The notes under the pieces: generated by a model
Databases searched by the model: none
Told to the model about the DNA's origin: nothing
What the model saw: only the letters and a program-made list of their open reading frames with translations
Assembly: GCA_022647575.1 (NCBI GenBank)
Contig: JALCKY010000003.1
Coordinates: 1-64,000 of the forward strand
Length of the DNA: 64,000 nucleotides
Direction: 5' to 3'
Origin: Lachnospiraceae bacterium
GTDB taxonomy: Bacteria; Bacillota; Clostridia; Lachnospirales; Lachnospiraceae
In this document: positions 11,471 to 31,210 of the stretch, in pieces
How positions within the stretch are numbered: the first letter of the stretch is position 1
Layout: each line of letters starts with the position of its first letter
Position numbers and translations under genes: made by a program

Positions 11471-11471
11471 C

Positions 11472-14779: not shown

Positions 14780-16346
14780 TGGCAAGCGTTACATTTATTC
14801 CGGCAAAAAGGCAGGTCGGAAACAACATCAGTAAAGAGGAAGCTCCTAAGCTCCGCGTCGCAGCATACTGCCGTGTCAGCACCGATTCTGACGAACAGGA
14901 AACCAGCTACGACGCACAGGTCTCCCACTACACAGAATACATTCAGAAGAATCCGGAATGGGAGCTTGCAGGTATTTTTGCTGATGACGGCATTTCCGGC
15001 ACCAACACAAAAAAGCGTGATGAGTTTAACCGCATGATTGATGAGTGTATGGCCGGAAACATCGACATGATCATCACAAAATCCATCAGCCGATTCGCCC
15101 GCAACACTCTTGATTGCCTGCAGTATATCCGGCAGCTCAAGGACAAAAATATCCCGGTCTACTTTGAAAAGGAATCCATCAACACAATGGATGCCAAGGG
15201 CGAGGTTCTTATAACGATTATGGCTTCCCTTGCCCAGCAGGAAAGCCAGAGTCTTTCGCAGAACGTAAAGCTCGGTCTGCAGTATCGTTACCAGCAGGGA
15301 AAGGTAAGCGTTAATCACAACCGCTTCCTCGGTTACTCGAAAGACAATGACGGAAAGCTCATAATTGACGCTGAGCAGTCCGAAGTTGTGAAGCGCATCT
15401 ATCGCGAATATCTCGAAGGCCTCAGCATGGACAAAATAGCCTCCGGACTTGAGGCGGATCACATCCTTACCGGTGCCGGAAAAGAAAAATGGCACACGAG
15501 CACGATCAACAAGATTCTCCGGAACGAAAATACATGGGCGATGCCCTTTTGCAGAAAACCTATACCACCGACTTCCTTACAAAGAAACGAATCAAGAACA
15601 CGGCATCGTGCCGCAATACTATGTTGAGGACGATCATCGAAGCCATCATTCCGAAAGAAATCTTCATGCAGGTACAGGAGGAACTTGTCCGCAGGCGCGT
15701 CGTGCACAAGAGCCCGACAGGCAAGAAACGCACCTACTCCTGCAATCATTGCTTTGCGCAGATGATTTTCTGCGGAGAGTGCGGCGAGCTTTACAGGCGC
15801 GTCCATTGGAACAATCACGGCTGCAAATCCATTGTCTGGCGCTGCATCAGCCGCTTGGAGCCATCGGAAGCTGAGAGCAACTGTACGAATCGGACGGTAA
15901 ATGAAGCTGCCCTTGAGGACGTCACGGTCAAATCCTTAAACCGGATTCTACGAGGCAGGAAAGAGTTCTTGGCCCAGCTGCAGGAAAACGTAGCCAGGGC
16001 CGTCGTCACAACCGACACTCTCTCACCGGAAGGCATCCAACTGAGGCTTGAAGATTTACAGAAAGAGCTGCTTCGAAAGGTCGAGGGCGGCAAAGACTAC
16101 AATGCCATCACTGACGAGATGGTTCGCCTGCAGGAAATGAAGAAACAGTCCACGGTCGACAATCACCGTAGAGAAGAAGCCATGAACCGGATCAAGGAAC
16201 TGCAGGATTTCGTCGCCATGCAGAATACAGAAATTCATGTGTTCGATGAATCTCTCGTCAGGAAGCTTATAAAAAGCATCACAATATACACGGATAAGTT
16301 CACCGTCGAATTCAAATCCGGCGTCAGTGTGGATATTGCAGAATAA
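14779..16346 (+). pseudogene. Large serine recombinase 3, frameshifted
   Basis: From ATG 14779 the protein has the resolvase domain ([20 protein letters not shown], catalytic Ser in RVS), [12 protein letters not shown] and a recombinase domain to KILRNE. A missing A in 15527-15530 shifts the frame. A second loss near 15598-15601 and an added C near 15638 shift it twice more. The C-terminal half then runs open with a zinc ribbon (CGECGELYRRV) and coiled coil to TAA at 16346. As written, the catalytic half is severed from the DNA-binding half. Confidence 0.8.
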
Positions 16347-16347
16347 A

Positions 16348-16395
16348 AGAGCAGGCTGCTCCGATAGGAATCTTACCTATGAAGTGGCTTGCTCT
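16348..16395. terminator. Hairpin after recombinase cassette
   Basis: AGAGCA (16348-16353) pairs with TGCTCT (16390-16395), and ATAGG (16364-16368) pairs with CCTAT (16376-16380) inside. It lies between the convergent recombinase and ABC-F genes, so it may serve either. The T run after it is short, so the call is tentative. The prophage end should lie near here. Confidence 0.4.
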
Positions 16396-16451
16396 CTTGT
16401 TTGTACAAATCGGAATTTAATCAAGAAAAAGATCATGCTCATATCACAAAA

Positions 16452-17942
16452 CTATAACTTCACTTTTTTCGTCGCAATTTTCTCACAAAAGGTACTGTCA
16501 TGTTCAACGAACAAAATGGTTGGTTTGAACTGCAAAATTAAATTCTCAATTTGCATACGAGATATTACATCAATATAATTTAACGGTTCGTCCCAAATAT
16601 ATAGGTGAGCGTTTTCGCAAAGACTTCTTGCAATCAATACTTTTTTCTTTTGACCGCCACTAAAATCACGCATATTCTTATCAAATTGTATTCTCGAAAA
16701 ATCAAGCTTGCGAAGAATTGCTTTGAAAAGGCTCTCATCAATTTTGTTTTGTAAAGCGTAATCTGACAAATTTCCGCTTAAAAATGAAGTATCCTGCGAA
16801 ACATACGAAATGGTCAATTGGCTGCCTTTTTCAAAAATACCAGTATGAGTTATATTCTCACCGCAAATAAGCTTTAGTATGCTTGATTTTCCACTTCCGT
16901 TTTTGCCTACAAGAGCAATACGGTCACCACATTCTATGGTAAAGCTGATATCCTGACAAACTGTTTTTCCATCATAGAAAATGGAAACATCGGATAGCTC
17001 TGCAAGCCGGCTTGCATGATAAGAAAGCTGTGTTAATTTTAAATTGTCAGCATTTTCAATATTTTTGACCAGTTTAGACTTTTCTTCAATGGCAGATTCT
17101 TGACGTTCCTCAATAGCTTTGACTCTTTTCATAAGCTTTTTTGATTTTGCACCTTGGAGAGGACGTTTGCCTGCGCTACTACTATCGGTCGCAGTTGAAT
17201 CAAATCCAACTTTTCGACGCTCTGCAGTATCCGCCCAATTCCTTTTTTCTCTTGCGGTTTTTTGAAGACGTTTAACCTCTTTTTTTAGCTTTTCGTTTTC
17301 AGCAAGCTCAAAGTTATCTTGTCGTTCCTTGTTCACAAGCCACGAGGAAAAGTTACCGCTCTGTATTTCAATATTTGTTTTATTAATGGAAAGCACATGG
17401 TCTATGCAGCCGTCTAAAAAAGCTCTGTCATGTGATACTAAGAGAAATCCGCTTTTGGATTTCAGATATCTGCTTACGATTGAGCGCGCTGCGATATCAA
17501 GATGATTTGTAGGTTCATCAATGAGTAAAAAGCTGTTTTCTTTGAGAAATAGAACAGCAAGCAAAACCTTAGTCTTTTCACCATTTGACAACGTTTGAAA
17601 CGGACGATACAACACATCCTCCGACACATCAAGCAATGACAGCTCCCGCAGCAGTTCCCATTGCAGAAAATCCTTACAAATGCTATTGATAACATCCATC
17701 GTGTTTTGTGTTTCGTCAGCCACCGTATAAGGAAAATACTCAAAGTCGACCGAAGATGAAATATTTCCGCTGTATTCAAACTTGCCAAGCAGTAAATTTA
17801 AAAAAGTTGTTTTCCCTCTGCCGTTTCTTCCGATGAAACCCAGTTTCCAATTCGTGTCAATTTGGAAGCTGACATTTTCAAAAATATTGTCGTAACTTCC
17901 CGGATATGAAAAAGTCAAATTATTTACGTTAATAAGCGACAT
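16452..17942 (-). CDS. lsa: Lsa-type ABC-F ribosome protection protein
   Basis: The 496-residue protein has two ABC ATPase halves and no transmembrane segment, as in ABC-F factors that displace lincosamides, streptogramin A and pleuromutilins from the ribosome. Half 1 shows Walker A GRNGRGKTT, signature LSNGEKTK and Walker B LLIDEPTNHLD. A basic inter-domain linker follows at about 210-320. Half 2 shows GKNGSGKSS, FSGGQKKK and YIWDEPLNYID. The start at 17942 (MSLINVNNLTFSYPGSYDNIFENVSF) follows AAGGAGG; an upstream in-frame start runs into the leader. The N-terminus is that of the Lsa family, but the exact subclass cannot be fixed here. A leader peptide and attenuator control it. Confidence 0.85.
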   Translation of the reverse strand: MSLINVNNLTFSYPGSYDNIFENVSFQIDTNWKLGFIGRNGRGKTTFLNLLLGKFEYSGNISSSVDFEYFPYTVADETQNTMDVINSICKDFLQWELLRELSLLDVSEDVLYRPFQTLSNGEKTKVLLAVLFLKENSFLLIDEPTNHLDIAARSIVSRYLKSKSGFLLVSHDRAFLDGCIDHVLSINKTNIEIQSGNFSSWLVNKERQDNFELAENEKLKKEVKRLQKTAREKRNWADTAERRKVGFDSTATDSSSAGKRPLQGAKSKKLMKRVKAIEERQESAIEEKSKLVKNIENADNLKLTQLSYHASRLAELSDVSIFYDGKTVCQDISFTIECGDRIALVGKNGSGKSSILKLICGENITHTGIFEKGSQLTISYVSQDTSFLSGNLSDYALQNKIDESLFKAILRKLDFSRIQFDKNMRDFSGGQKKKVLIARSLCENAHLYIWDEPLNYIDVISRMQIENLILQFKPTILFVEHDSTFCEKIATKKVKL

Positions 17943-17957
17943 GCTTTTGTCCTCCTT

Positions 17958-18000
17958 AAAAATTATGGGCTGCAAGAAAGTACATTCTTGCAGCCCATAA
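17958..18000 (-). promoter_or_regulatory. Attenuator hairpin of the ABC-F gene
   Basis: A perfect 16-bp inverted repeat (17963-17978 and 17985-18000) with a 6-nt loop is followed on the minus strand by five T and then the ribosome site of the ABC-F gene. It looks like an intrinsic terminator in the leader. With the short upstream leader ORF, this is the usual layout of antibiotic-induced, ribosome-mediated attenuation in Lsa, Vga and Msr-type genes. A second weak hairpin (GGCGC/GTGCC arms) lies near 18098-18112. Confidence 0.75.
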
Positions 18001-18048
18001 ACGGACAAAGTCCAGCCAGAAAGGCAAGACAAAGCTATGCGTTTAGAG

Positions 18049-18081
18049 TTAAAGAAGATGGTAACTTTCTTGCATAGGCAT
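18049..18081 (-). CDS. Candidate leader peptide of the ABC-F gene
   Basis: This 10-codon frame encodes MPMQESYHLL and ends 49 nt before the attenuator stem. No strong ribosome site is seen before the ATG. Size and place match leader peptides whose drug-stalled translation opens the attenuator. Another start in a different frame (TTG at 18086) would extend into the ABC-F gene itself, so the assignment is tentative. Confidence 0.45.
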   Translation of the reverse strand: MPMQESYHLL

Positions 18082-18204
18082 AACAAAAGCAGGCACTTTA
18101 AGCGCCCAGGACATCCTATTATGCCTTAATATTTAGCAAGAAATAATACGCATCTTTCCACCCCTATCATTATTTTAAATTATTGTACCATACTTTTCAT
18201 TCTG

Positions 18205-19074
18205 GTGCAAGCCAATCTATATATACAATGCCTAATACTGGATATCCGCCGTCCAGAGGAAGTGTTATCGACCCTTGTCAGTATTAACGAGCGAATTATT
18301 GTAGATGCACCAGAAGATTATCTACTGCTATTACAGGATGAATTCCCATACTTTGAAAAATACGGCGTAACAGATGCTCTTACTGATCTGGTAAATCGCA
18401 TTGAATATTTCATGCAGGAGCATAAAATAAATAGTCCTCGTTCCAAAGCATTATTACTGGACTACAAAGCTGAACTTTTCTATCTAAGAAAAGACTATGC
18501 CAATGCTCTAAAACGCAGAAAAAAAGCACTGGATATCATTACTCCAATGCTTACGGATGATGCAGATATTCAGATTGTCAGTCTTGCATCCAACCTACAC
18601 AATAATATAGCAAACTGCTGTCTAGCTATTAAAGACCTGTTAAATGCAACTGCTGAAATGGAAAAGGCTCTCTCTATTCGAAAAGAATATGAAGCACTTG
18701 GAACTATGGAGAATCACGATGTATTACAGCAGATGGGTAATCTTGTAAGTCTACTGATTCAAGCCAAAGATTACGAACATGCAACTGCTCTACTAGACTT
18801 CTATGAACAGACTGTTATGGAACATGAAGGCAACGATACCTTTGATTATGGCTACTGTCAATTCCAGCGAGGATTACTTGCACTCTCCACAGGAAAAACA
18901 ACCATTGCCGAGAAGCATCTGTTACTTGCAGAATCCATATTTGCTAATACGGTAGGTGTGAATCATGAATACACCAAGGGCATATATGCTTATCTAAATC
19001 TTCTGTATCAGAAATGGAGAAAACCTGAATTGGCAGAGAAATATAAGCAGAAATACATTGATATAGGAAAATAG
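18205..19074 (+). CDS. TPR-repeat protein, probably 5'-truncated
   Basis: The 289-residue protein is all-helical with tetratricopeptide-like units, for example KALLLDYKAELFYLRKDYANALKRRKKALDII at about 90-120 and later repeats around 140-280. Such arrays often form the C-terminal half of STAND/NB-ARC-type or Rgg-like regulators. The GTG start has no clear ribosome site, and coding resemblance seems to begin abruptly next to the ABC-F leader, so I suspect the N-terminal part was lost when that gene was acquired. Base composition is AT-rich like the element around it. No enzyme motif is present. Confidence 0.6.
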   Translation: MQANLYIQCLILDIRRPEEVLSTLVSINERIIVDAPEDYLLLLQDEFPYFEKYGVTDALTDLVNRIEYFMQEHKINSPRSKALLLDYKAELFYLRKDYANALKRRKKALDIITPMLTDDADIQIVSLASNLHNNIANCCLAIKDLLNATAEMEKALSIRKEYEALGTMENHDVLQQMGNLVSLLIQAKDYEHATALLDFYEQTVMEHEGNDTFDYGYCQFQRGLLALSTGKTTIAEKHLLLAESIFANTVGVNHEYTKGIYAYLNLLYQKWRKPELAEKYKQKYIDIGK

Positions 19075-19079
19075 TTTTC

Positions 19080-20063
19080 TTATTTTATCCTTTTACCTAC
19101 TACTACAAACCTACCATCCTCTACCTGATAAGAGCAGCAAGACAATGTAATAAATTCATCCCCATATTCTGCTGTTACACCAGTATCATATAGAGACATT
19201 GCTTTTATGTTATCATACCAGTTATCAAATTCAGCCTGCGTATCAGCCTGAAAGAACTGATAATATTTAAAAACCGTATCTGTACTCATATAGACCTGTG
19301 AATAGAAAACTGTAATCAGTTCATATTCGCGTTGTTCATATAAACTGTCAAAGTAAATAATTGAATGAGCTTTTCCATAATCTTCATCCGCATATTGCTT
19401 TAATCCTCCAAACATCAAGCCTGATTTCATCGTATGTCCATGAATAATCAGATTTGTTGAGGGTTTGGTTCCATCCCTATATTGATAAGTACTCGTTCCT
19501 GTACCCACAATAGAATCTGTGTCCATAATCAAGCATCCATTCATGTTTTCTTCCTTGTTAAAATCATAATCCAGATAATAGTCTTCATCTTCCATCGTCT
19601 GCATGACAGGATAATCAATGACTGTATCCTCTATTCTAAGCCATCCAATCATATCTGCATTTTGTCCATATAATGAATGGTATTCCGGAAGTATCTCTGC
19701 TTGCACTGGTTCATGCGTTGGATTTTTTATTTCATTGTTTAATATATCCTGCAAAACAGTTGCTATACCAGCAGTAGGCATTGTATATAGTTCCGTTTTG
19801 TCTTGTAACCTACTATCGTTTATGGATTCCATTAAAGTGCTTTGTGTTTCAATGGCTTTTCTATTATCACGGTATCTGCCTAGAACGATAACCGCAATTA
19901 CTACGACACAAATGCATAAAACCACAGTCAATAAAATCATATATCTTCGATATCTTCTTTGCAGTTGTCTTCTACGACGAAAACGGGTGACTTTCGCCAC
20001 CCGCTTATTCTTTCTATTTGTTTGTCCTCTATCGCCTAATTCCATCTTCACATCAAACCTCAT
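19080..20063 (-). CDS. Class B-like sortase paired with DGR target
   Basis: The 327-residue protein has a basic N-terminus (RRRRQLQRRYRR), one membrane helix at about 42-65 (MILLTVVLCICVVVIAVIVL) and an extracellular sortase domain. Catalytic residues are visible: His in NLIIHGHTMKSG, Cys in ITLSCCSY and Arg near the C-terminus in GRFVVVGKR. Spacing and the IDYPVMQ strand are class B-like. It starts 6 nt after the end of the DGR target gene, which itself ends in a VPKTG anchor, so this enzyme probably links that protein to the wall or builds a polymer. The ATG at 20063 lacks a good ribosome site; the ATG at 20045 is an alternative. Confidence 0.85.
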   Translation of the reverse strand: MRFDVKMELGDRGQTNRKNKRVAKVTRFRRRRQLQRRYRRYMILLTVVLCICVVVIAVIVLGRYRDNRKAIETQSTLMESINDSRLQDKTELYTMPTAGIATVLQDILNNEIKNPTHEPVQAEILPEYHSLYGQNADMIGWLRIEDTVIDYPVMQTMEDEDYYLDYDFNKEENMNGCLIMDTDSIVGTGTSTYQYRDGTKPSTNLIIHGHTMKSGLMFGGLKQYADEDYGKAHSIIYFDSLYEQREYELITVFYSQVYMSTDTVFKYYQFFQADTQAEFDNWYDNIKAMSLYDTGVTAEYGDEFITLSCCSYQVEDGRFVVVGKRIK

Positions 20064-20069
20064 TTGAAA

Positions 20070-21686
20070 TTATCGAACTGTATTTCTCTTTCTTCCGAAA
20101 TATAAAATTCCAATTCCACTTATCAATGCAAGAACAAATAACCATACAATCGGAGTAGAATCTCCAGTTTTTGGCACATCATCTTTATTTGATGGTGTAT
20201 CTGGTGTATTTGATGGTGTGGTTGCTGCAGCCTCTTTTACTGTAAATGAAGTGGAAGCGGAGCCATCTGTCCATACAAGTTCAAATGTATGATTGCCAGC
20301 AGATAATGTTTTTAAGTAATCTGCTTTCAATGTAACAATTGTGTAACCTTCTGTTACCGTATAATTACTTCCATCCACTACGGTTCCATCTACCTTCACT
20401 TCTTTAAACTTAGATACTTCTCCGTCTCCTCGGATTGACAATGTTCCATCTGTGCCGCTCGTCCATGTACCACCTGCACCTTCGATAATCTTATAAGTTG
20501 GTGTAGCAGGTGTTGGATCTGGTGTTGTTGTATCATTCTCGTAGGTTGCTGTTACAGTAACTGCATTTGCTGGCATTGTAAATACTGCTGTTGCACTGTC
20601 CTTGCTGCCACTTGTGAATGTCAAGCTATCTGTTCCTGTCCATTCCTTAAAATGCTGTCCACTTGGGGCTGCATCTGCAGTAATCGTAACAGATGCATCC
20701 TTTGCATAACTACCGTCTCCTGTACCGTTAGTTACGGTTACCTGATATAAAGTTGGTGGATTTGGAGATGCTGTCACTGTTACAGTCGCTTTCTCGCCTG
20801 CAAGTAATGTATCTGTTCCCGCAAGTCTTACATAATATGTTCCTGCTGCTACTGTAGTATTACTTAATGTACAAGAACTCCATGTAGCATTATTGTTTCC
20901 ATCATATGTAGATTTTAATATATACTCCATCGCTGTCGTTGTTCCAGCTATCTTATCTACTCCATCACTTAATCCTGCCGGAGCATTCTGTGTTCCTTTG
21001 GCTGTAGCATCTGTAAGTGTAATCGTTGCTGTAGCTGTTGGTGTTCCTGAAACTGTAATCTGTGTATAACTGTTTCTTGTTACACTAACTCCACTGACTG
21101 CTGCTACGCTATAATTTGTTGGGAAATAAAATCCCTCATTTGCTTTATATACAACATCAGTCATAGCACCTGTAAGTCCAGTCTGACTTTCTGTACCTGA
21201 TGTATTTGTCTTGGTCATGTTGCTGCCTGGTGTTACAGTCACATCATATGTTGAAACTGGTTCTGGAATGGTAAGTGCTACTGGTTCGGAAGAATAATCT
21301 GATAAAGTATCGCCATTTACATCTTCTGCCATCATGTAAACTTTATAATCTTCTGATAAACCTTCTGGAAGTGTAAATGTACCTGTTCCTGTAGCTGCTA
21401 ATGTGGTAGTTAATGCTCCATAATATAAAATACTTGCATCACCTTCTCCATATGCTTTATCTGTAATCATAATTGAAATCTGTGAAACATCACTACCTGT
21501 ATATGTATATGGAACTGTAATCGTCTGTCCATTTCTTGAAACTGACTGACCCGATGTAATGCTAACTCCTTTAGAAGAATCTTTTAATGTCAACTTCCAT
21601 GTATTCGCACTAGTGGTATTTACCGATGCAAAAGAGGATTTGCTCGTTCCACTCGCAGATGTGAAGAGCACAGAGCTCAGATTCAA
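20070..21686 (-). CDS. DGR target surface protein, C-terminal piece (out of frame)
   Basis: This 538-residue frame continues the target protein after the frameshift in the variable repeat. It opens with NLSSVLFTSA, the end of the DUF6273 lectin-like domain. Ig-like and InlB-type repeats follow (one ends FTMPANAVTVTATYE), then a Pro/Thr linker. At the C-terminus are a VPKTGDS sorting motif, a membrane helix (IVWLFVLALISGIGILYF) and the basic tail GRKRNTVR. The apparent TTG start at 21686 has no ribosome site and falls inside the domain, so I regard this as a severed half. Adding four bases in the VR joins it in frame to the upstream piece. Confidence 0.8.
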   Translation of the reverse strand: MNLSSVLFTSASGTSKSSFASVNTTSANTWKLTLKDSSKGVSITSGQSVSRNGQTITVPYTYTGSDVSQISIMITDKAYGEGDASILYYGALTTTLAATGTGTFTLPEGLSEDYKVYMMAEDVNGDTLSDYSSEPVALTIPEPVSTYDVTVTPGSNMTKTNTSGTESQTGLTGAMTDVVYKANEGFYFPTNYSVAAVSGVSVTRNSYTQITVSGTPTATATITLTDATAKGTQNAPAGLSDGVDKIAGTTTAMEYILKSTYDGNNNATWSSCTLSNTTVAAGTYYVRLAGTDTLLAGEKATVTVTASPNPPTLYQVTVTNGTGDGSYAKDASVTITADAAPSGQHFKEWTGTDSLTFTSGSKDSATAVFTMPANAVTVTATYENDTTTPDPTPATPTYKIIEGAGGTWTSGTDGTLSIRGDGEVSKFKEVKVDGTVVDGSNYTVTEGYTIVTLKADYLKTLSAGNHTFELVWTDGSASTSFTVKEAAATTPSNTPDTPSNKDDVPKTGDSTPIVWLFVLALISGIGILYFGRKRNTVR

Positions 21687-22402
21687 ATTAAAAGCGGGAC
21701 GAACAGAACCGTAGCCAAGAGTACAAGGCCGCCCGAGTCGACGACGCCGTAAGCGGACACGTCGGCTGCATCGAGATCATCGTCACCAGGGGAACGAAGC
21801 CACCACCAAGAGCTTGCAGCTCTTGTGTTATTAGAGGTAAATCCATAATTTGCATTATTTACATCCGCCAAGTCTAGTAAAAAGATTTTATCACTCGTTG
21901 TACCGCTTGGATAAGAAGCATAGCCACCATTCGTTGTCTTGGAACTATTAATTGTAGTTGCGTCAATACTGGTTTGTTCCACGCTTGTCATTGTTCCAAG
22001 AAATCCACCACTAGCTTCTGTTTTTTCTGTATCATTTAAATTTCCACGAATGGTAGAAGTTGACCAATCGGATTTATCATCATCAAACGCTTGTGTTGCT
22101 GAAAGAAAATCTTTTGTCAGTAACAACATATGGTTAGATACAGATGATTTTCCGTTTGTCAGTGAACCATCCTTATCTAACACATAGCACTCTTTTCCAC
22201 CATAATATACTTTACTGCCTGACCAGGTATCACTTGCTGTAGTGTCTGGATTACCGATTCCTCCTGTACGGAGATTAATTGTTGATGGGTTTGTTGATGC
22301 CTGTACCTCAGTTGTTCCTCCTGGCATAAATGAGATTGTGCCTGCCACCATCACCGCAGCTAGTGCAACAGATAGTACTCTTTTAAATCTGTTCTTTTTC
22401 AT
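21683..22402 (-). CDS. DGR target protein, N-terminal piece with DUF6273 domain
   Basis: The start at 22402 (MKKNRFKRVLSVALAAVMVAGTISF) follows GGAAGGAAGG and gives a clear signal peptide. Residues from about 40 on form a DUF6273/C-type-lectin-like fold, with FLLDLADV and SSWWWLRSPG just before the variable repeat. The variable residues read DDDLDAADVSAYGVVDSGG. Then a net 4-nt loss against the template moves the frame, and translation ends after 239 residues at LLI. The expected VRPAFNLNLSSV end of the domain lies in another frame. The start overlaps the RT gene by 20 nt, suggesting translational coupling. As written, the product would be secreted but not anchored. Confidence 0.85.
   Translation of the reverse strand: MKKNRFKRVLSVALAAVMVAGTISFMPGGTTEVQASTNPSTINLRTGGIGNPDTTASDTWSGSKVYYGGKECYVLDKDGSLTNGKSSVSNHMLLLTKDFLSATQAFDDDKSDWSTSTIRGNLNDTEKTEASGGFLGTMTSVEQTSIDATTINSSKTTNGGYASYPSGTTSDKIFLLDLADVNNANYGFTSNNTRAASSWWWLRSPGDDDLDAADVSAYGVVDSGGLVLLATVLFVPLLI
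21694..21811 (-). repeat. DGR variable repeat (VR)
   Basis: This 118-nt segment matches the 122-nt TR. On the coding strand both begin with the A-free TCTTGGTGGTGGCTTCG (27 identical nt in all) and end with the A-free CGGTTCTGTTCGTCCCGC. Between these, all 22 substitutions fall on TR adenines. Four bases are missing, and all four can be placed on adenines in AAC AAT and AAT codons. Ten TR adenines are unchanged. The A-free 3' stretch is the likely initiation-of-mutagenic-homology region. The 4-nt loss shifts the reading frame of the target. Confidence 0.92.
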
Positions 22403-23492
22403 AATGTTCATCCTTCCTTCCGTTTCTCGTGTCCTGTATAGGATTGTCTGTACTCTTTGTAAGTACAAAATTTTGATATACTTGTTTTCTTAATCTCCAA
22501 GTATCTCCATATCGAAGATGACCTTCATAACTTTTCATACTTCTTGTGATATCTTCAAAGCTCTTTTCGCCAGTCTTATACTGTTTTTGATAAAGCTTTA
22601 GTCTTCTTTTCCAACGTTTCTTATTGGAAGTTCGCAGTCTTTTTATGACTTTTCCAGTATCTGTAAGATAGAATCGAAATCCTAGATAATCTGCACCCTG
22701 GCTAATCGGAAATATCTGTGTTTTTTCATTAAACGAAAGTTTCAAATCTTCATTGATGTATTGCTCCATTTGATGCAAGCATTGTCGAAGATATTCTTTA
22801 TTCTCATGTATGATGATTCCATCATCCATGTATCGGCTGTAATATCTTATTCCAAATTGTTCCTTTATCATTCGGTCAAGACCATCCAAATACCATAGTG
22901 CAAACCACTGACTTGTCTGGTTTCCTAACGGAAGTCCTCTCATATCTGATTCATCTGGGTTAACGGAAATACTATCTATGATTTGAAATAATAATTCTTT
23001 TACTTCATCATCCTCAATTCCAATCAGTTTTTGTTTTAAAACGTTATGATTGATGCTATCGAAGAACTTGCGGATATCAAATTTCAAGATATATCCTTTC
23101 GTCCCATGCTGTCTATAATAAGCACGCATAAACTCCGTTAATCGGTCTGTTGCAAAGCGTGTGCCTTTTCCAACTCTACAAGCAGCATTATCATAAATCA
23201 ATCTTGGCTCAAAATAGGGTTTCAGTATATTATCACAAATACTATGCTGAACAATTCTATCTCTAATAGAAAGTGCCTGAATCTTACGTTTCTTTGGATC
23301 ATATATCTGGAAGTAGTGGTATCCACTTAGCCTATACTTTCTACTTTCAAGTTCATCATGGAGCTTCCATAGATTACTTGATAAATCAAGTTCAAAATCT
23401 ATCACATCTTTTTTATTTCTTTTCCCTTTTGCTGTAGCTTTATATGCACGATATAAGGATTCAAACTGATAGATTTTCTCATATTCTGTCAC
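22383..23492 (-). CDS. DGR reverse transcriptase
   Basis: The 369-residue protein starts at a GTG (23492) behind AAGGAGG. An ATG 54 nt upstream is possible but lacks a ribosome site. RT motifs are in order: first catalytic Asp in KFDIRKFFDSI (about 139), LGNQTSQ at 189-195 and YMDDG at 221-225. The GxxxSQ form in place of the QGxxxSP of group II intron enzymes is the DGR hallmark. There is no maturase or endonuclease domain. It makes error-prone cDNA of the TR with errors at adenines, working with Avd. It lies between the TR and the target gene, whose start it overlaps by 20 nt. Confidence 0.95.
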   Translation of the reverse strand: MTEYEKIYQFESLYRAYKATAKGKRNKKDVIDFELDLSSNLWKLHDELESRKYRLSGYHYFQIYDPKKRKIQALSIRDRIVQHSICDNILKPYFEPRLIYDNAACRVGKGTRFATDRLTEFMRAYYRQHGTKGYILKFDIRKFFDSINHNVLKQKLIGIEDDEVKELLFQIIDSISVNPDESDMRGLPLGNQTSQWFALWYLDGLDRMIKEQFGIRYYSRYMDDGIIIHENKEYLRQCLHQMEQYINEDLKLSFNEKTQIFPISQGADYLGFRFYLTDTGKVIKRLRTSNKKRWKRRLKLYQKQYKTGEKSFEDITRSMKSYEGHLRYGDTWRLRKQVYQNFVLTKSTDNPIQDTRNGRKDEHYEKEQI

Positions 23493-23727
23493 CCACACCT
23501 CCTTGATTATATTACCATTCCAGGAAATCGCACAGCAATTTCCCAAAGCATCCGAAAATTAAATAATAACGTCCTATGCTAGAATGGTATGTGTTTTTCT
23601 GTACACAAGTTCGTATACAAAAAGGAATAAGATTCCTTTACCCCAGACAAATATATTGTTTGTAAATTTACTTGCAATACATACGGATGCATCCTCCATA
23701 GAATACATATCAGGTACATGGGGTCAT

Positions 23728-23849
23728 GCGGGACGAACAGAACCGTTTTCATTGTTTACATTGTTGCCGTTCGAGTTGACGTTGCCGTTATCGTTCACGT
23801 TGGCTGCATTGTTATCATTGTTACCAGGGGAACGAAGCCACCACCAAGA
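23728..23849 (-). repeat. DGR template repeat (TR)
   Basis: The 122-nt TR lies 46 nt after avd and 235 nt before the RT start, on the same strand. The coding-strand core holds 36 adenines by hand count, mostly in AAC and AAT codons. Such codons can change to many residues at positions 1 and 2 without giving a stop. The flanks (27 and 18 nt) contain no adenine. It is presumably transcribed as part of an avd-TR-RT RNA, and the following spacer probably contributes to cDNA priming, as in the Bordetella phage system. Confidence 0.93.
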
Positions 23850-23895
23850 CGAAAATATCAATCTTATCCCTATATATGATCAGGCTTTCACCGAA

Positions 23896-24300
23896 TCAAC
23901 TGTTTCTTTGAAATCTCACCGCATCACTTTTCATCCATGCGCCAAGCAGGTTCTGGCAATCATATACTTTCCTTGTTATTTGTTCATACTGTTTTGGCAG
24001 GATACATTGCTGTTCCATTGCCACCTGAACCATATAGGAAAGCAGCTTTAAATTTGTCATTGCTTCTCGTTGCATATGCACTCTTTCTTGTACTAATTGC
24101 ATATTGAGGGTGCGATTTGTTTCATATACATAAATCTCATTCGCTTTTATCAGCATCTCAATCACATTAAGTGCATAATTTTGTATTTTCCCAGTGAGTG
24201 TAAATCGAAAACGTTTTGGTGATTTTTCTGTAACTGTCAAAATGTAATTACACAGCTCCTTTGATTTTGTTATTACTGATAACTCTGTTTTCTTTTCCAT
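23896..24300 (-). CDS. avd: DGR accessory variability protein (Avd-like)
   Basis: The 134-residue protein is helical and basic in its first half (ILTVTEKSPKRFRFTLTGKIQNYALNVIEMLIKANE), the pattern of the bAvd four-helix-bundle family related to 23S rRNA intervening-sequence proteins. Avd forms a barrel-like pentamer that binds the RT and the template RNA. The C-terminal helix is KQYEQITRKVYDCQNLLGAWMK. It is first in the DGR operon, just before the TR. There is no ribosome site before the ATG, and a promoter-like sequence lies so close that the message may be leaderless. Confidence 0.85.
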   Translation of the reverse strand: MEKKTELSVITKSKELCNYILTVTEKSPKRFRFTLTGKIQNYALNVIEMLIKANEIYVYETNRTLNMQLVQERVHMQREAMTNLKLLSYMVQVAMEQQCILPKQYEQITRKVYDCQNLLGAWMKSDAVRFQRNS

Positions 24301-24308
24301 ACAGTACT

Positions 24309-24337
24309 ATTCTACTACTATCAAAATACAATTTCAA
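24309..24337 (-). promoter_or_regulatory. Candidate promoter of the DGR operon
   Basis: On the minus strand TTGAAA (24332-24337) and TAGAAT (24309-24314) are separated by 17 nt. The start of transcription would fall about 2 nt before the avd ATG, implying a nearly leaderless message. Confidence 0.4.
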
Positions 24338-24616
24338 CATCAATTCAAAGAATGGTGTGAATCGATTTTTTTTAGTTATGAAATCTCATTTATTTCGATT
24401 TTGTATCTAGTCATTTAGATAAGCATTTCGTCTGTTAGGAAAGGTATCTCACAGGTTACAAGCCTCTGAAAAATCTGTTTAGTTAAGAAAAGGCATGTGA
24501 AAACGGTTGAGATTTGAATCAGGAAAACAAATCTGACGGTTTCAAAAATATATTGGCGTATGTCAAATAGACAGATTGCAAATCTGCCTAAAAAGGAAGT
24601 ATAATGGTAACGAGAT
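24338..24616. other. Noncoding stretch between DGR and IS4 transposase
   Basis: No credible gene is seen. It is AT-rich and has a small hairpin (CAGATT/AATCTG near 24571-24585) that could end transcription from the right. One end of the IS4-family element should lie here; a TTAAG-and-GTGAA-like stretch near 24484-24502 loosely matches, in inverse, sequence near 26000-26030, but I could not fix the termini. Confidence 0.4.
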
Positions 24617-25924
24617 TTAAGCCGCTCGATACATGAAATCCCTATTTCTCTTTGGTCGGAGGTTGATAGGATATTTACGGTTGCATCTGACTGGTGTCAG
24701 ATGATTTTGTATGAGAAGCATGGTCTTTATTTCGTCACTGCCCTGTTTTAGATATGCTCTGCATATGTTGACTGCAGTGGCGAAATTTATTTTATACGTA
24801 TGTTTCGTGTTGTCCCTTGTTTTTACTACAGCATGAGCGATTACAAGTTCGCAGAAGTTATAAAGTATCATGCGCGCATTGATTTCTTGAAGAATTCCGT
24901 CATACTTGCTACTGTGCCAGTTGACGAGACCAATCGTATATTTCAGTTCCCGAAAACTTGTTTCCACGCTCCATCTCATTCTGTAAAGCTTTTTAATCTC
25001 TTCCAAAGGAAATTCTTCTTCTGATAGATTGGTTGCAATACAAATGTAAGTTCCATTATCAAGAAGAATACGAACAATGCGAAATTCAATAGCAAAATAA
25101 GTACAACCATCATCAAAGAAATCAAAATCGGTAATCGGCTGAAGAATGGTATACGTATTCGGATTTTCGAGTGTTTCCTTCGTATGTCGTCTGGTAAGCG
25201 TAGTTCTTATATAGGTATCAAACTCACTGTCAGGAAGACTGTAAGTGGAAAGGATGCCATTACTGTTGATGTCCTTCATACGGATAACAAATTTCATATC
25301 TTTTTGAATAAGGTGAGCAAAGACATTGAAGCTTTCATATCCCCGATCTGCCATTAAAATAGCTGGTACAGGATCGGAGTAACGGTCAATCATGGAATTT
25401 AGTGCAGCACGTTCATGAAGCTTCTTTTTGCCCTGAACCAGAAAATCACAGTATGTATGGTTAGTGATATCATAAAGTGCATTGACGTGAATTGCATTGT
25501 AACCTTTTTCACCTTCATGGATAAAAGTTCTTTCATCCTCTGGGTTGCGTGCTATGTTGACATCAGAACCATCGCATGCTAAAAGGCGATAGCCGCAATA
25601 GAGCTGATCAGACAGTTCCCTGCACTGTTCCACAAATATATGGAACAGGAAATTCCATCCTTCTGGTTGAAGTTTGAATCGCTGCTGTGTAAAAGCAGAT
25701 TTTGTAGGAGCTGAAAGAGAATGTTCGAAGAAATCCAGGATTTCATTTGAAACAGACTTACTCTGCATTTGAAGCATGAGCTGAATATAATCATGGAAAG
25801 AGAGTTTACGATTTCTTGTAAAATCAGCCTCCGGATTTTGGCAGAACATGAAGTGAATCTCATCAAGGTCTGCAATACAGTTGTCGAGGGTCAGTTTTAA
25901 ATCAGATAAAAAATTTTGAGCCAT
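24617..25924 (-). CDS. IS4-family transposase
   Basis: The 435-residue DDE transposase starts at 25924 (MAQNFLSDLKLTL) behind AAGGAGGCGCC. Catalytic residues are recognisable: Asp in LLACDGSDVN, Asp in AILMADRGYESF and Glu in the YREK-type signature YRMRWSVETSFRELK, which has the IS4-family spacing Y-2-R-3-E-6-K. The frame is complete, so the element may be active. It separates the DGR operon from the mobilization genes and has the AT-rich composition of the element. Terminal inverted repeats were not resolved. Confidence 0.88.
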   Translation of the reverse strand: MAQNFLSDLKLTLDNCIADLDEIHFMFCQNPEADFTRNRKLSFHDYIQLMLQMQSKSVSNEILDFFEHSLSAPTKSAFTQQRFKLQPEGWNFLFHIFVEQCRELSDQLYCGYRLLACDGSDVNIARNPEDERTFIHEGEKGYNAIHVNALYDITNHTYCDFLVQGKKKLHERAALNSMIDRYSDPVPAILMADRGYESFNVFAHLIQKDMKFVIRMKDINSNGILSTYSLPDSEFDTYIRTTLTRRHTKETLENPNTYTILQPITDFDFFDDGCTYFAIEFRIVRILLDNGTYICIATNLSEEEFPLEEIKKLYRMRWSVETSFRELKYTIGLVNWHSSKYDGILQEINARMILYNFCELVIAHAVVKTRDNTKHTYKINFATAVNICRAYLKQGSDEIKTMLLIQNHLTPVRCNRKYPINLRPKRNRDFMYRAA

Positions 25925-26209
25925 AGGGCGCCTCCTTGAAAAATGTTTATAATCAAGGCTCGCGCAACATATTTTGGCTATCTTGTCAACTATTTTCGTA
26001 ATCCTAAATTCCACGTGCATTTTTTATTAGCTTAAAAGAACACTATTTCACGAAGAATTTAAACTGATACTCCCACATTGTAACATTATTTACCACCACC
26101 TTTCAATCTTTTTCAATAAATTATTGATTGCAACTTTGGAGTAAAGATACTTATTAAACCCTGCAAGTTATCCACAGAGCAACACTCGATTTTCAAGATG
26201 ATATCTTTA

Positions 26210-27472
26210 TTATACCAGACATTTTTCATACACTTCCTTGTACGGATAGTTTTCTGACAAATTCATAATTACAGTTCTTGCGGTTTTAATGATTTTGGCT
26301 GCAAGAAATACATACTTCAAACGAAAGGTCTTTATTTGCTGTCTGTATTCTGAAGGCTCTAAGGAATCAATCTTGAACAACAAAAACAGGTTATATGAAA
26401 GCATCATCATTTGAAACACCGCTTCATTTGCCCAAAATGATTTAAGTAAAAGATGACCCACCGCCATGTCGTATTTGGCTTCTTTAATATAGTTCTCAGC
26501 ATTGCCACGTTTTTCATAGGATATAACTACTTTTTCAGAAAGCAATGTAGTGTTTGTCACAAAGAAAAAGTATTCGTACTCAGAGCCTTCTAAAAGTGAT
26601 ATTTGTGCTCTTTCTTTTTCTGGTTTCAGTACGCGAGACACAACAAACCTTCTGTCTTTCTCCCAGTTATCTAATTTTGTAAACAGTTCTGTAGTTTCTC
26701 TGCCTTCTTCACCTTTAACGAATACAACCGATGAATTCGTTGCTTGGGATGCAAGCGTAGAATAACTTTTGGCTTTAATTAAATATTTGCAACCAAGAGA
26801 TTCTATCGTTTCAATAATTTTTTCATCAAAGTAGCCACTATCCATTCGAAATAAAATCTCTAAATCATCTGTTTTGATGTTGGCTACTATTTCTTTGATC
26901 ATTTCAGATGCACCGTTAGCTGTGTAAGTATTGCCACTTCTTACAAATCCGGTGACGTAGGCTTTTAATTCGTCGCAAAATGCAAACTGGATATTGTAGC
27001 ATCGGTTTCCTAGTTTCTTGGGATTATATCCTTTTGATGCACCTTCTTGATGACCTTCTACGTTGATTACACTACTATCAATATCAATCGTAATGGATGT
27101 CAATTTACTTTTAGTGAGCAGTTTTTTAAAGACTTTAAAATTAATGTCTCTAAACATTTGTGTTGTCTTAAAGGTGAAGTTTCCTAAAAACCGTGACACT
27201 GTTTCAGGTTCTTTTACGGAAATATCAAATTCATTAACGAGTGGATCATTTTGAAGGAGCTTTAGACGTTCTAGCTTGTCTATACCAATAAAGTGACCAC
27301 AGATCATCGTCTTTATATGATTCATCTTGATTTTATTTGTGGAGTCATTATCAAATACGAGGTCATTTTCAACTAGATCAAAAATCTCATTACTTTTTGC
27401 GTTCTCAAGGAGAAGAAAAAGACCTGCATTTGATGTTAGATTCTTAGCTGTGAAATCAATTTTATTAATCAT
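26210..27472 (-). CDS. IS1380-family transposase
   Basis: The 420-residue protein has the IS1380 layout: ITIDIDSSVINVEGHQEG holding the first Asp, FRMDSGYFDEKIIE holding the second, and KRGNAENYIKEAKYDMAVGHLLLKSFWANEAVFQ with the catalytic Glu. The frame is full length and the ATG is followed by NKIDFTAKNLTSNAGL. It lies tail to head behind the IS4 transposase. The upstream 69 nt and downstream 190 nt probably hold the element ends, but inverted repeats were not resolved by eye. Confidence 0.88.
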   Translation of the reverse strand: MINKIDFTAKNLTSNAGLFLLLENAKSNEIFDLVENDLVFDNDSTNKIKMNHIKTMICGHFIGIDKLERLKLLQNDPLVNEFDISVKEPETVSRFLGNFTFKTTQMFRDINFKVFKKLLTKSKLTSITIDIDSSVINVEGHQEGASKGYNPKKLGNRCYNIQFAFCDELKAYVTGFVRSGNTYTANGASEMIKEIVANIKTDDLEILFRMDSGYFDEKIIETIESLGCKYLIKAKSYSTLASQATNSSVVFVKGEEGRETTELFTKLDNWEKDRRFVVSRVLKPEKERAQISLLEGSEYEYFFFVTNTTLLSEKVVISYEKRGNAENYIKEAKYDMAVGHLLLKSFWANEAVFQMMMLSYNLFLLFKIDSLEPSEYRQQIKTFRLKYVFLAAKIIKTARTVIMNLSENYPYKEVYEKCLV

Positions 27473-27541
27473 AATTTAAACCCCTTTTTCTGCTTTTGTT
27501 ACTATTATTGTACCATATATCGACTCATAAAAGCTGATAAT

Positions 27542-27859
27542 TCAACACATTTTTGAGCATTTTTCTTTCACCCAATGGGTGAAAGCTGAATTTTGAAGGA
27601 ACGTATATTTATCAATGCTTTGAGGGTGGTTTATAAAGTACTGACGTAGAATCTCAGATACTGGTGGCATCTCCGTGTTGTTTTCACTAAGACGCTTCAA
27701 CATAGCTTCTTCTCCGTGGAGATATTCTTCATCTGTAGAACCAATCCATAGAATGTCCTTATGCAGATGCTCCTTTAATGGTTCTAGGTTACTTTGCCAG
27801 TATTCTTCTAATATGTGTTGTGTCAGGTACATGACCTGAGTACGATTCTTTTTCTTCAT
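27542..27859 (-). CDS. Small protein, chimeric SnoaL-like fragment at IS junction
   Basis: The start at 27859 (MKKKNRTQVMYLTQHILEEYW) has a weak GGAGC site. The first 60 or so residues (HLHKDILWIGSTDEEYLHGEEAMLKRL) look like the start of a SnoaL/NTF2-type sensor domain that in Firmicutes often precedes a LytTR domain. The remaining residues (NHPQSIDKYTFLQNSAFTHWV...) do not continue it. A CTTTCACCCA/TGGGTGAAAG palindrome lies inside at 27565-27585. I take it as a gene truncated by the neighbouring IS, with its end supplied by junk or IS-border sequence. Confidence 0.45.
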   Translation of the reverse strand: MKKKNRTQVMYLTQHILEEYWQSNLEPLKEHLHKDILWIGSTDEEYLHGEEAMLKRLSENNTEMPPVSEILRQYFINHPQSIDKYTFLQNSAFTHWVKEKCSKMC

Positions 27860-27933
27860 GTGTTTGCTCCATTGATTGTAATTATTGTGTTGATTATATT
27901 GTAGCACGCATCCGCACAATAATCACTTTCAAT

Positions 27934-28410
27934 TTATCTGCCTCGTCCTCGTCTGCGAACTGGGGCGATAACCTGCTGTTCTTCTATCTCTTTTGCCTGT
28001 TCCTTATTCTCTTCTTTTCCTTCTTCCATTGTAGGATGTTCCTTTGCATACTTCACACGACAATCATACTCTTCATTAAAGTCATCATAGACAGACATCT
28101 TGTAACGGACTCCCTGCATAGATTCCTCTGTATATCCCATTCGCTCCATATACTTGCTAATCTCTTCCATTCTATCCTCTGTTGGTGGTGGAAGAAGCTT
28201 TGCTCTTTCTGTTAATGATAATTTGCGATATTCTGATGGAGATGGGAATTTCTTTATCTGGTCAGGTTCGTCCGATCGCTGATTAGAAGTATCATCAGAA
28301 CTGCCACCTTGCCATTCTTTATTGAATTCATCAAAAGCACCACCATAGAAGATGCTGTCGTCACCCATCTGGAATACTGTGTTCTTCTCGGAACTGATCA
28401 AAGCCTTCAT
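27934..28410 (-). CDS. Mobilization-associated acidic protein, unknown
   Basis: The 158-residue protein overlaps the relaxase 3' end by 50 nt in another frame. A shorter version starts at 28368, where ATGGGTGA overlaps the relaxase stop. It is acidic and helical (SLTERAKLLPPPTEDRMEEISKYMERMGYTEES) and ends in RRRGRGR, like the ParB of this element (RKGRGR). No named domain is recognised. Tight coupling to the relaxase suggests a role in mobilization. Confidence 0.55.
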   Translation of the reverse strand: MKALISSEKNTVFQMGDDSIFYGGAFDEFNKEWQGGSSDDTSNQRSDEPDQIKKFPSPSEYRKLSLTERAKLLPPPTEDRMEEISKYMERMGYTEESMQGVRYKMSVYDDFNEEYDCRVKYAKEHPTMEEGKEENKEQAKEIEEQQVIAPVRRRGRGR

Positions 28411-29434
28411 AATAGGAGATATCCTTCTTCTCTTCTGTTGGCGCTTCTTCTATATTAGTAGTATTAGGAGCTGTCGTTTGTTTCTCCTGTTCCTCCCACT
28501 TGTCATAATCTTTAATACTGTCATTTGCTTTCTCTATCTCTGCATCTAGTCGCTCATATTCCAGTCTTTTCATTTCCTTCTTTTCCATATAGTCGGTAAT
28601 CCCAGCAACTGTGAACTTATCTCCTAGCTTCGAACCTCTGACTGCCTGTAGCTTGCCTCCTTTCCCTGGTTTATGTGGAAGCGCATAGCTGATGGTGTTG
28701 CCTTTAAGGCGGATATTGATACGATAGACACTCCTTAATTCTTCCACCACATCATCAATAGTCTTCGTGTTACGGCTGTTCATGGCAAGTCTGATATAAG
28801 TACGAAGTTCATCCTTGAAGGATAACTTATTGCGTTTTTTCATCTGATATTCAGGAAATGTCCTACGTTCTCTTTCTTTATCTTCCACATAGAAAGTATC
28901 TCGATAAGAATGTGTCAAACCTTTCTTCCTGCACTGTTCTCCAAAGAATGCACACATTTCTCTTAGTTCCTTTGGTCCTCTTCGGTAAGAGCTGCCATTC
29001 TTCAAGTTGCAGTTGCTGACAATAAAGTGAACATGGATATGCTCTGTATCTGTATGAACTGCAAATAATACTTCAAAGCCCTTTGACCAGAAGAACTCTC
29101 TTGCAAAGTCCTGCGCTATCTGAAATGCATCCTCATAGGTAACCTTATCGTTGTCCTCTGGATGAAAGGAAATAGACATCTTATGTGCTAGGATTTCCTT
29201 TGGAAGCCATCTGTTATACTTCTTTTCGTGCATCTTCCTTGTGATGAGCTGTGTATTGGCAAAGTTATCCCGATTACAGCCTAATGCCATATAGAGGTCA
29301 TCTCTGGTCTTAATGATACCTTCTTTTCTCTGTTGTTCCATGTTGCCAAGGATATAATCTGTTGCTCCCTTTAGCTGTCCTGTGGACTTGCAGGGTGCAT
29401 AGTTTACCTTAACATTTCCATATACCTTTCCCAT
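28361..29434 (-). CDS. MOBP-type relaxase
   Basis: The 357-residue relaxase starts MGKVYGNVKVNYAPCKSTGQL and has an N-terminal Tyr (TDYILGN) and the HUH-type metal motif HTDTEHIHVHF at about residue 127, the HxDxxHxHxH form. It nicks oriT and leads the strand into a recipient cell. The C-terminal third is charged and helical. There is no coupling protein or type IV secretion gene in the window, so the element would depend on a helper. It lies 98 nt after mobC in the same orientation. Confidence 0.85.
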   Translation of the reverse strand: MGKVYGNVKVNYAPCKSTGQLKGATDYILGNMEQQRKEGIIKTRDDLYMALGCNRDNFANTQLITRKMHEKKYNRWLPKEILAHKMSISFHPEDNDKVTYEDAFQIAQDFAREFFWSKGFEVLFAVHTDTEHIHVHFIVSNCNLKNGSSYRRGPKELREMCAFFGEQCRKKGLTHSYRDTFYVEDKERERRTFPEYQMKKRNKLSFKDELRTYIRLAMNSRNTKTIDDVVEELRSVYRINIRLKGNTISYALPHKPGKGGKLQAVRGSKLGDKFTVAGITDYMEKKEMKRLEYERLDAEIEKANDSIKDYDKWEEQEKQTTAPNTTNIEEAPTEEKKDISYYEGFDQFREEHSIPDG

Positions 29435-29532
29435 AAATTCTCCCTCCCGAAGCTATGTTTCGCTTCAATGATTCTTGTTATCTGTAATTACTGCTTCTAA
29501 TTGCATTCCAACTCCTGCTATTGCATCTGCAA

Positions 29533-30460: not shown

Positions 30461-30564
30461 GCAGGTAGTACCGTTGGCTTGCCAACTCGTCAAAAAAATA
30501 GAACCACAACGGAGTTGCGGTTCTATTTTCTCTCCTCGTCGGCTGCTCCAACGGTGCTACCTGC
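30461..30564. repeat. Nested inverted repeats, candidate oriT or single-strand structure
   Basis: Outer arms GCAGGTAGTACCGTTGG (30461-30477) and its near complement (30548-30564, one mismatch) enclose a 16-bp hairpin with a 3-nt loop (30495-30510/30514-30529, one mismatch). The small palindrome GTTGGC-TT-GCCAAC (30473-30486) overlaps the left arm. A G- and C-run-rich stretch (GCCCCCGAGACCCCC) follows at 30576-30590. Confidence 0.6.
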
Positions 30565-30591
30565 TCATGGTCTTCGCCCCCGAGACCCCCT

Positions 30592-31202: not shown

Positions 31203-31210
31203 CTAACCAC

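What the first reader, a model, noticed from the sequence alone, without database searches (positions are those of the whole stretch)
19080..24300. Complete DGR operon with a sortase-anchored hypervariable surface protein
On one strand and within about 5.2 kb lie Avd-like protein, TR, a reverse transcriptase with the DGR-specific LGNQTSQ and YMDDG motifs, a target with a lectin-like DUF6273 domain holding the VR, and a sortase. The target has a signal peptide and a C-terminal VPKTG anchor, so the diversified loop would be shown on the cell surface. The sortase begins 6 nt after the target, suggesting a dedicated pair. DGRs are known; the tight operon with its own sortase on a mobilizable element is the notable part.
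Basis: partly seen in the sequence, partly recalled or inferred. Interest (0 to 1): 0.9.

Follow-up and report, generated by a model that had tools for sequence, protein, structure and literature searches.

The report
Wall-anchored lectin diversified by a retroelement
A bacterial mobile island carries a cassette that rewrites the binding face of a wall-anchored lectin-like protein encoded next to a sortase, but in this genome the rewritten stretch is out of reading frame, so this copy reads as switched off.

Summary
The DGR is real: Avd, TR, DGR-type RT, DUF6273 target with VR, and a class B-type sortase lie on one strand. All 24 TR/VR mismatches fall at TR adenines. Of 80 other TR/VR pairs only L005's (RT about 60% identical) has a frame-changing gap inside the repeat. 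The adjoining chromosome shows no split gene. RT-target-sortase recurs in another genus with an intact target (L143). The cassette lies on a low-GC island with relaxase and MobC. A DGR-RT relic in the same family adjoins a homologue of the Thomasclavelia ramosa IgA protease, whose N-terminal domain is DUF6273 with a solved lectin-like fold. Verdict: a known kind in a new variant. The frame break is best read as a null allele made by mutagenic homing, perhaps reversible; reads must test this.

The parts
23896..24300 (-). Avd-like accessory protein, 134 aa
   Evidence: Pfam bAvd 48.4 bits (cut-off 40), PHROG 3206 4.9e-22; NCBIfam Avd 56.3 bits, below its cut-off of 80
23726..23849 (-). Template repeat (TR), between avd and RT, rich in AAC; reads in the target's frame without a stop
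   Evidence: TR/VR alignment
22383..23546 (-). DGR-type reverse transcriptase (start codon uncertain), LGNQTSQ and YMDDG
   Evidence: PHROG 1423 9.4e-121; RVT_1 6.8e-20; best PDB 8ub7 7.5e-43
21683..22402 (-). Target, upstream frame: signal-like N-terminus and most of the DUF6273 (C-type-lectin-like family) domain, ends VPLLI-stop just after the VR
   Evidence: ORF list, Pfam DUF6273 5.6e-11, frame map
21692..21811 (-). Variable repeat (VR): 24 substitutions, all at TR adenines; lacks 3 nt and 1 nt against the TR, which breaks the frame
20070..21686 (-). Target, downstream frame: end of the lectin domain, InlB B-repeat, weak CBM_X2, wall-sorting signal
   Evidence: Pfam PF18998 1.5e-12; TIGR03063 23.3 bits against cut-off 18.15
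20070..20180 (-). Cell-wall sorting signal: VPKTGD, hydrophobic segment, basic tail
   Evidence: sequence; TIGR03063 residues 505-525
19080..20063 (-). Class B-type sortase, 6 nt after the target stop
   Evidence: PF04203 2.1e-7; TIGR03064 119 bits, below the equivalog cut-off of 153.75; PDB 2oqw sortase B 1e-28
24617..26020 (-). IS4-family transposase upstream of avd
   Evidence: NF033592 172.6 bits, cut-off 115
26210..27472 (-). Second transposase (DDE group 1)
   Evidence: PF13701 1.5e-55
28361..29434 (-). Relaxase (MobA/VirD2-like)
   Evidence: PF03432 1.5e-21
29533..29886 (-). MobC
   Evidence: PF05713 2.3e-5
31211..32311 (-). Actin-like partition protein (ParM/Alp type)
   Evidence: PF17989 1.3e-11
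32871..33770 (-). ParB-like protein at the right edge of the island
   Evidence: PF02195 4.1e-17
16001..34000 (.). Low-GC island (35-42%) between a phage/recombinase region (47-54%) and chromosome (52-57%); edges good to 2 kb only
   Evidence: 2-kb composition profile
13039..16346 (+). Two large serine recombinases left of the island; the second (14695-16346) is split by a frameshift
   Evidence: PF00239, PF07508, PF13408

Best explanation
It is a diversity-generating retroelement carried on a mobilizable island. Avd and RT copy the TR RNA with errors at adenines and the cDNA replaces the VR in the target gene (inferred from DGR biochemistry; the TR/VR pattern is shown). The target is built as signal peptide, N-terminal C-type-lectin-like DUF6273 domain holding the VR, Ig-like stalk and VPKTG sorting signal, so the sortase made from the next gene would fix it to the wall with the variable face outward (architecture shown, anchoring inferred). 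In this allele the homing product is out of register: three bases are missing in one adenine-rich stretch and one in another, so translation stops just after the VR and no anchored protein is made. TR, RT, Avd and sortase are open, so a later homing event from the in-frame TR could in principle replace the broken VR; the null state may thus be reversible (inference). My odds: DGR with wall-anchored target design 0.97; trio is a conserved arrangement rather than chance adjacency 0.85; break made by the DGR rather than by ordinary mutation or assembly 0.6; reversibility in nature 0.4.
For: 24 of 24 TR/VR mismatches at adenines. Both gaps lie inside the VR in adenine-rich TR stretches, and the rest of the target is open. 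L005, the nearest relative with a detectable TR/VR pair, has a one-base VR gap at an adenine run and the same VPLLI-stop ending. Power: 385 of 385 planted one-base deletions seen by the aligner and 75 of 77 by the whole pipeline, yet none of 79 other top pairs has a frame-changing gap inside the repeat (L076's end gap not counted). 25 ORFs tile 28,023 of 29,475 nt of neighbouring chromosome with no sign of a split gene. L143 (G058) holds an RT C-terminus, an intact 970-aa VPKTG target and a sortase 61% identical. DUF6273 in a solved homologue is C-type-lectin-like and that entry, 9qa6, is the only Foldseek match below 0.001. Slippage indels in AAC repeats are described for a DGR RT, in multiples of three (PMC12875486, passage).
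Against: Only two broken VRs, in two assemblies, of which L005 is a MAG by its title; reads were not available, and VRs are said to break assemblies (PMC8008677, passage). The described slippage is in multiples of three, which fits the 3-nt gap but not the 1-nt gaps. L143, L158 and the second L018 copy have intact target frames, so the break is not a rule of this group. 80 of the 92 loci compared are IMG/VR contigs, where selection on the target may be stronger. The second serine recombinase in the window is also frame-broken. Absence of split chromosomal genes is read from ORF tiling, not from homologue lengths. The structure model is weak (pLDDT 60).
Confidence: 0.62

Rival explanations
1. 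Ordinary decay: a DGR target that has become a pseudogene by a chance indel after its last homing, on an island that is losing function.
For: Transposases next to avd, a frame-broken recombinase in the same window, a DGR relic in G381 and a truncated sortase beside IS21-type genes on contig C5 of the same genome show that such cassettes do decay.
Against: Avd, RT, sortase and the downstream target frame are all open; both gaps fall inside the VR; L005 shows the same kind of event.
Confidence: 0.25
2. Assembly artefact: a mixture of VR variants was merged into one false consensus, and the real target is in frame.
For: The VR is expected to be a mixture; genome 94.3% complete with 3.74% contamination; VRs are said to break assemblies (PMC8008677, passage); reads not available.
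Against: No sign of a split gene in 29.5 kb of adjoining chromosome; 24 of 24 mismatches at adenines and no stray mismatch; same kind of event in a separate record (L005).
Confidence: 0.15
3. Programmed frameshift: two products by design, a short secreted lectin and a long anchored form.
For: Both broken genes end at the same VPLLI-stop. A phage DGR reverse transcriptase is proposed to be made by programmed frameshifts (PMC8008677, passage); odds raised from 0.03 to 0.05 for this precedent.
Against: The shared ending follows from the conserved VR end read in the same wrong frame; no canonical slippery heptamer is evident there (by eye); the TR itself is in frame and L143 has one intact frame.
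Confidence: 0.05

Closest known systems
Bordetella phage BPP-1 DGR (mtd-avd-TR-brt; layout recalled)
   Same: Avd, TR, RT, adenine-specific TR-to-VR change, lectin-type target
   Different: Bacterial wall-anchored target downstream of the RT, VR inside the gene and not at its end, sortase gene in the run
Cellular surface DGRs of Legionella and Treponema (lipoprotein targets partly recalled; Legionella DGR on an acquired island in a PMC4891356 passage)
   Same: Bacterial surface target with a DGR-diversified C-type-lectin domain; horizontally acquired island
   Different: Here the anchor is a sortase signal with an adjacent class B-type sortase; the VR domain is N-terminal with a stalk after it
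DUF6273 DGR targets of Faecalibacterium prophages (PMC11792537, passages)
   Same: DUF6273 with the VR at its C-terminal end
   Different: Phage proteins; 'sortase' does not occur in that main text
Thomasclavelia ramosa IgA protease (PDB 9qa6; PMC12237041 and PMC12402451, passages)
   Same: N-terminal DUF6273 lectin-like domain, beta-rich domains, C-terminal sortase motif
   Different: Carries an M64 peptidase domain, not matched in the window target; 'retroelement' does not occur in either main text

Membership tests
Diversity-generating retroelement | TR/VR pair whose substitutions sit at TR adenines | tested here: met
   24 of 24 over 120 aligned bases
Diversity-generating retroelement | RT of the DGR group rather than group II intron or retron | tested here: met
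   PHROG RT family 9.4e-121; solved RT 8ub7 7.5e-43 (a DGR RT by recall) against 9.3e-16 for a group II intron RT; no tree was built
Diversity-generating retroelement | Avd accessory protein | tested here: met
   Pfam bAvd above cut-off, PHROG Avd; NCBIfam Avd below cut-off
Diversity-generating retroelement | VR in a C-type-lectin-type domain of the target | tested here: met
   DUF6273 by Pfam; fold taken from the solved homologue; own model only pLDDT 60, match to 9qa6 E 7.2e-4
Diversity-generating retroelement | Invariant GC-rich 3' end of the repeat (IMH-like) | tested here: met
   19 nt up to CCCGC identical in TR and VR
Diversity-generating retroelement | Stem-loop after the VR | tested here: inconclusive
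   only a four-pair hairpin seen by eye; not seen in L005 by eye; no folding run
Diversity-generating retroelement | Readable target gene | tested here: not met
   frame broken inside the VR in this allele; intact in the relative L143
Diversity-generating retroelement | Mutagenic homing in the living cell | not testable with these tools
   needs reads or culture
Class B sortase | Class B sequence profile and substrate motif | tested here: inconclusive
   TIGR03064 119 bits below its cut-off of 153.75; PDB sortase B 1e-28; neighbour carries VPKTG, not NPQTN
Integrative mobilizable element | Relaxase with auxiliary Mob protein, integrase, foreign composition | tested here: inconclusive
   relaxase, MobC and low GC shown; attachment sites and which recombinase belongs to it not determined; no transfer tested

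The most novel reading that the evidence does not exclude
In this group the DGR both diversifies and switches a sortase-displayed lectin: one-base register errors at template adenines make off alleles at useful frequency, and the next homing from the in-frame TR restores an on allele with a new binding face. The same module family supplied the recognition domain of gut IgA proteases, so the ligands may be host IgA or mucosal glycans.
Probability: 0.17. Interest if true: 0.86.

Novelty: new variant of a known kind. Interest (0 to 1): 0.6.

Why it matters
A published survey places VRs near-universally at target C-termini, likely because cis DNA signals are needed after them (PMC8144416 section 8). 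A sortase signal must sit at the C-terminus, so this cassette shows another solution: variable lectin in front, stalk and anchor behind, sortase next door, on a mobilizable island here and again in a second genus. The out-of-frame VR in two related elements raises a testable question: do DGRs also act as on/off switches? The tie between a DGR-RT relic and an IgA-protease-like gene suggests where the lectin domain of gut IgA proteases may come from and what such variable proteins could bind.

Tried and rejected
A first gapped TR/VR scan over-extended the repeats and gave false frame calls; it was replaced by a stricter one and not used. In L005 the top-scoring repeat pair (1495-1653 / 2606-2760, away from the RT) was set aside by hand for the second pair. 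Lower-ranked pairs were ignored; three of them (L014 third, L057 and L058 second; 55-69 aligned bases with 16-17 gap letters) do carry frame-changing gaps but are not TR/VR pairs in my judgement. L076 shows a 2-nt gap at the extreme 3' end of its alignment, by the stop codon; I judged it an edge effect and did not count it. Eleven of 92 loci gave no pair; a lenient second look recovered an ungapped one in L069 and nothing convincing in the other ten.

IMG/VR: the RT as a single query gave no relative (the RT alignment did: 563 of 600 stretches, a capped list, best 80 kept); no relative of the sortase or of the L143 target, and no exact match to a 23-base VR flank. The plasmid match to the target stalk (Roseburia, 42.6%) has no DGR or sortase annotated beside it, though that gene table is incomplete. 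A second structure model (L143 domain) was poor, pLDDT 46.5, and was not searched. Promoter and terminator scans gave 33 promoter-like sites against 22.3 expected (sd 4.6) and 3 terminator-like against 2.9: not informative. Programmed frameshifting was considered and given low odds. Seven papers hold 'diversity-generating retroelement', 'variable repeat' and 'frameshift'; I looked at passages of two: the frameshifts there are in RT genes (PMC3521204; PMC8008677). I make no claim that VR frameshifts are unpublished. Passages of PMC6642488 and PMC10053308 had no bearing.
Full report
What is there. Avd: Pfam bAvd 48.4 bits (cut-off 40) and PHROG Avd 4.9e-22, though the stricter NCBIfam model gives 56.3 bits against a cut-off of 80. 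RT: PHROG 9.4e-121; its best solved match is 8ub7 (7.5e-43; a DGR RT by my recall), far ahead of a group II intron RT (9.3e-16). The sortase starts six bases after the target's stop, matches sortase B structures (2oqw, 1e-28) but stays below the class B equivalog cut-off (119 against 153.75 bits). The RT and target genes overlap slightly (22383-22402).

TR and VR. Over 120 aligned bases there are 24 substitutions, all at the 34 TR adenines; the chance of that is about 7e-14. One of the 24 is the second-last aligned base and may lie just outside the repeat. Just before it, 19 bases up to CCCGC are identical, as expected of an IMH-like end. A search of the own genome with the TR found only this TR and VR and a 17-base match, so this assembly (94.3% complete) holds one target of this TR.

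The target is two open frames. The upstream frame (22402-21683: signal-like N-terminus and most of DUF6273) meets a stop six bases after the VR; the rest (20070-21686: end of the lectin domain, InlB B-repeat, weak CBM_X2 and VPKTG signal) is in another frame. The cause lies in the VR: against the TR it lacks three bases at one adenine-rich stretch and one base at another. The TR itself reads through in the target's frame. This allele can make at most a short piece that lacks the end of the lectin domain and the anchor.

Is it chance or error? I aligned TR and VR in 92 loci (window, L005, L014-L022, the 80 IMG/VR loci kept, L106); 81 gave a pair, in 60 TR groups. Among the pairs taken as TR/VR, frame-changing gaps inside the repeat occur in the window and in L005 only. 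Of the other 79, 77 have no gap, L051 has an in-frame insertion of three, and L076 has a two-base gap at the very end that I did not count. Planted one-base deletions were seen in 385 of 385 aligner trials and 75 of 77 whole-pipeline trials. The split (2 of 2 against 0 of 79) has Fisher p = 3e-4, but it was formed after the fact and most of the comparison set is viral. One other null VR was seen, a stop codon without a net gap in L036. In the adjoining chromosome 25 ORFs, picked by me, tile 28,023 of 29,475 bases with no sign of a split gene; I did not check each against homologues. So a high general indel rate is unlikely. Against this, a serine recombinase at 14695-16346 is also frame-broken. 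Reads were not available, and VRs are said to break assemblies (PMC8008677, passage). Slippage indels in AAC repeats, in multiples of three, are described for a DGR RT (PMC12875486, passage); this fits the 3-nt gap, not the one-base gaps.

Relatives. RT relatives at E 1e-90 or better are rare: 2 of 397 genomes drawn from the family, 4 of 392 from the order, 5 of 391 from the class, each count with the own genome; in the genus 2 of 42 at 1e-40. At 1e-80, 2 of 188 in the order of G907 and 2 of 103 in the family of L005's genome, each with the centre itself. L005 (a Christensenellaceae MAG by its title, RT about 60%) has Avd, TR, RT and a target with SLH repeats broken in the VR, with MobA/MobC-like and integrase-like ORFs nearby, named by eye. 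L018 (G907) has a rearranged tandem of targets, one stop inside its RT match and no TR found; its second target copy is in frame. L143 (G058, another genus of the same family) ends inside the RT at a contig end, then has an intact target of 970 aa with DUF6273 and VPKTG, then a sortase 61% identical; its TR and Avd, if any, lie beyond the contig, and one search listed no RT for it, probably because the RT is cut. So RT-target-sortase is seen in two genera. L020 and L021 have intact internal VRs, L021 with SLH repeats. In all, 25 of the 81 pairs have their stop more than 150 nt after the VR, so an internal VR is not unique to this group.

The sortase. Homologues at 1e-40 occur in 79 of 240 family genomes, own included. 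I fetched nine places, eight from other genomes: in four (L143-L146) the sortase directly follows a protein with VPKTG or VPNTG; in two (L147, L151) the upstream neighbour has no such motif; in two (L148, L150, both G234) the contig ends there. So this sortase group often travels with its own substrate and the DGR target fits that habit. Another sortase gene of the same contig, at 57174-58049, is only 26% identical over 202 columns. On contig C5 of the same genome a second copy survives as a truncated sortase beside IS21-type genes, with a related target C-terminus at the contig end.

The lectin domain. My AlphaFold model of the upstream frame is weak (pLDDT 60), but its only Foldseek match below 0.001 is 9qa6, the Thomasclavelia ramosa IgA protease (7.2e-4); three of the other five listed are C-type lectins or a C-type-lectin-like venom protein at E 5 to 9, which is no evidence by itself. 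Two papers (passages) give the N-terminal domain of that protein as DUF6273 and as C-type-lectin-like in a solved structure, with a sortase motif at its C-terminus. In G381, a one-contig genome of the window's family, a truncated DGR-type RT (9e-44) sits directly before a 1209-aa protein with DUF6273, M64 peptidase, SHIRT and APKTG, which matches 9qa6 over residues 32-887 at 995 bits. No TR was found in the 19 kb fetched, nor a relative of this sortase. So the DGR lectin and the IgA-protease lectin are one family, and a DGR relic stands in the target position before an IgA-protease-like gene. What the window protein binds is unknown.

The island. GC is 35-42% from 16 to 34 kb, 47-54% to its left (phage-like genes by eye, recombinases) and 52-57% in the chromosome. 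It holds a relaxase, MobC, an actin-like partition protein, ParB and two transposases. I recognised no conjugation-pilus gene among the ORFs listed (by eye, no profile search of all of them); attachment sites were not sought; which recombinase belongs to the island is not settled.

What is known. DGR targets on bacterial surfaces are known, and DUF6273 targets are known in prophages (passages). A large survey puts VRs near-universally at C-termini (PMC8144416 section 8). In the held library no paper has 'diversity-generating retroelement' with 'sortase', nor 'retroelement', 'DGR' and 'sortase' together; that library lacks most subscription journals and all bioRxiv preprints. I make no claim that VR frameshifts are unpublished: of seven papers with the terms I looked into two.

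Verdict. A real DGR in a new variant: internal VR, wall-anchor design, sortase next door, mobilizable, and in this genome read out of frame. The mechanism of the break and its reversibility are inferences that reads can settle.

Noticed in passing
L158:5431-9540 (G381): Truncated DGR RT directly before a DUF6273 + M64 peptidase + APKTG protein, 995 bits to the Thomasclavelia ramosa IgA protease. DGR and IgA-protease recognition domains belong to one family.
   Followed up: partly
L149:5127-8369 (contig C5 end of the same genome): Second, broken copy: truncated sortase beside IS21-type genes and the C-terminus of a related target at the contig end.
   Followed up: partly
L107:7276-9801 and L160:8119-10692: DGR-linked DUF6273 proteins with TIR and TPR domains (L107) and a sub-cut-off NACHT match (L160): sensor-like designs with the DUF6273 domain at the C-terminus, in contrast to the wall-anchored design.
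   Followed up: partly
L036:7714-7816: VR with an in-frame stop codon and no net gap against the TR: another null VR allele, in an IMG/VR contig.
   Followed up: partly
L018:5787-8155: RT relic, target ending in TR-like sequence and a second RT-target unit: looks like a duplication with recombination between VR and TR.
   Followed up: no
L016:71-7340: Several DUF6273 target-like genes around one DGR.
   Followed up: no
window 14695-16346: Large serine recombinase split by a frameshift.
   Followed up: no
window 16452-19074: ABC protein with two ATPase stretches (ABC-F-like by eye) and a TPR protein between recombinases and sortase.
   Followed up: no
window 1-12300: Phage-like genes by eye (tape measure, tail, lysin), left of the island.
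   Followed up: no
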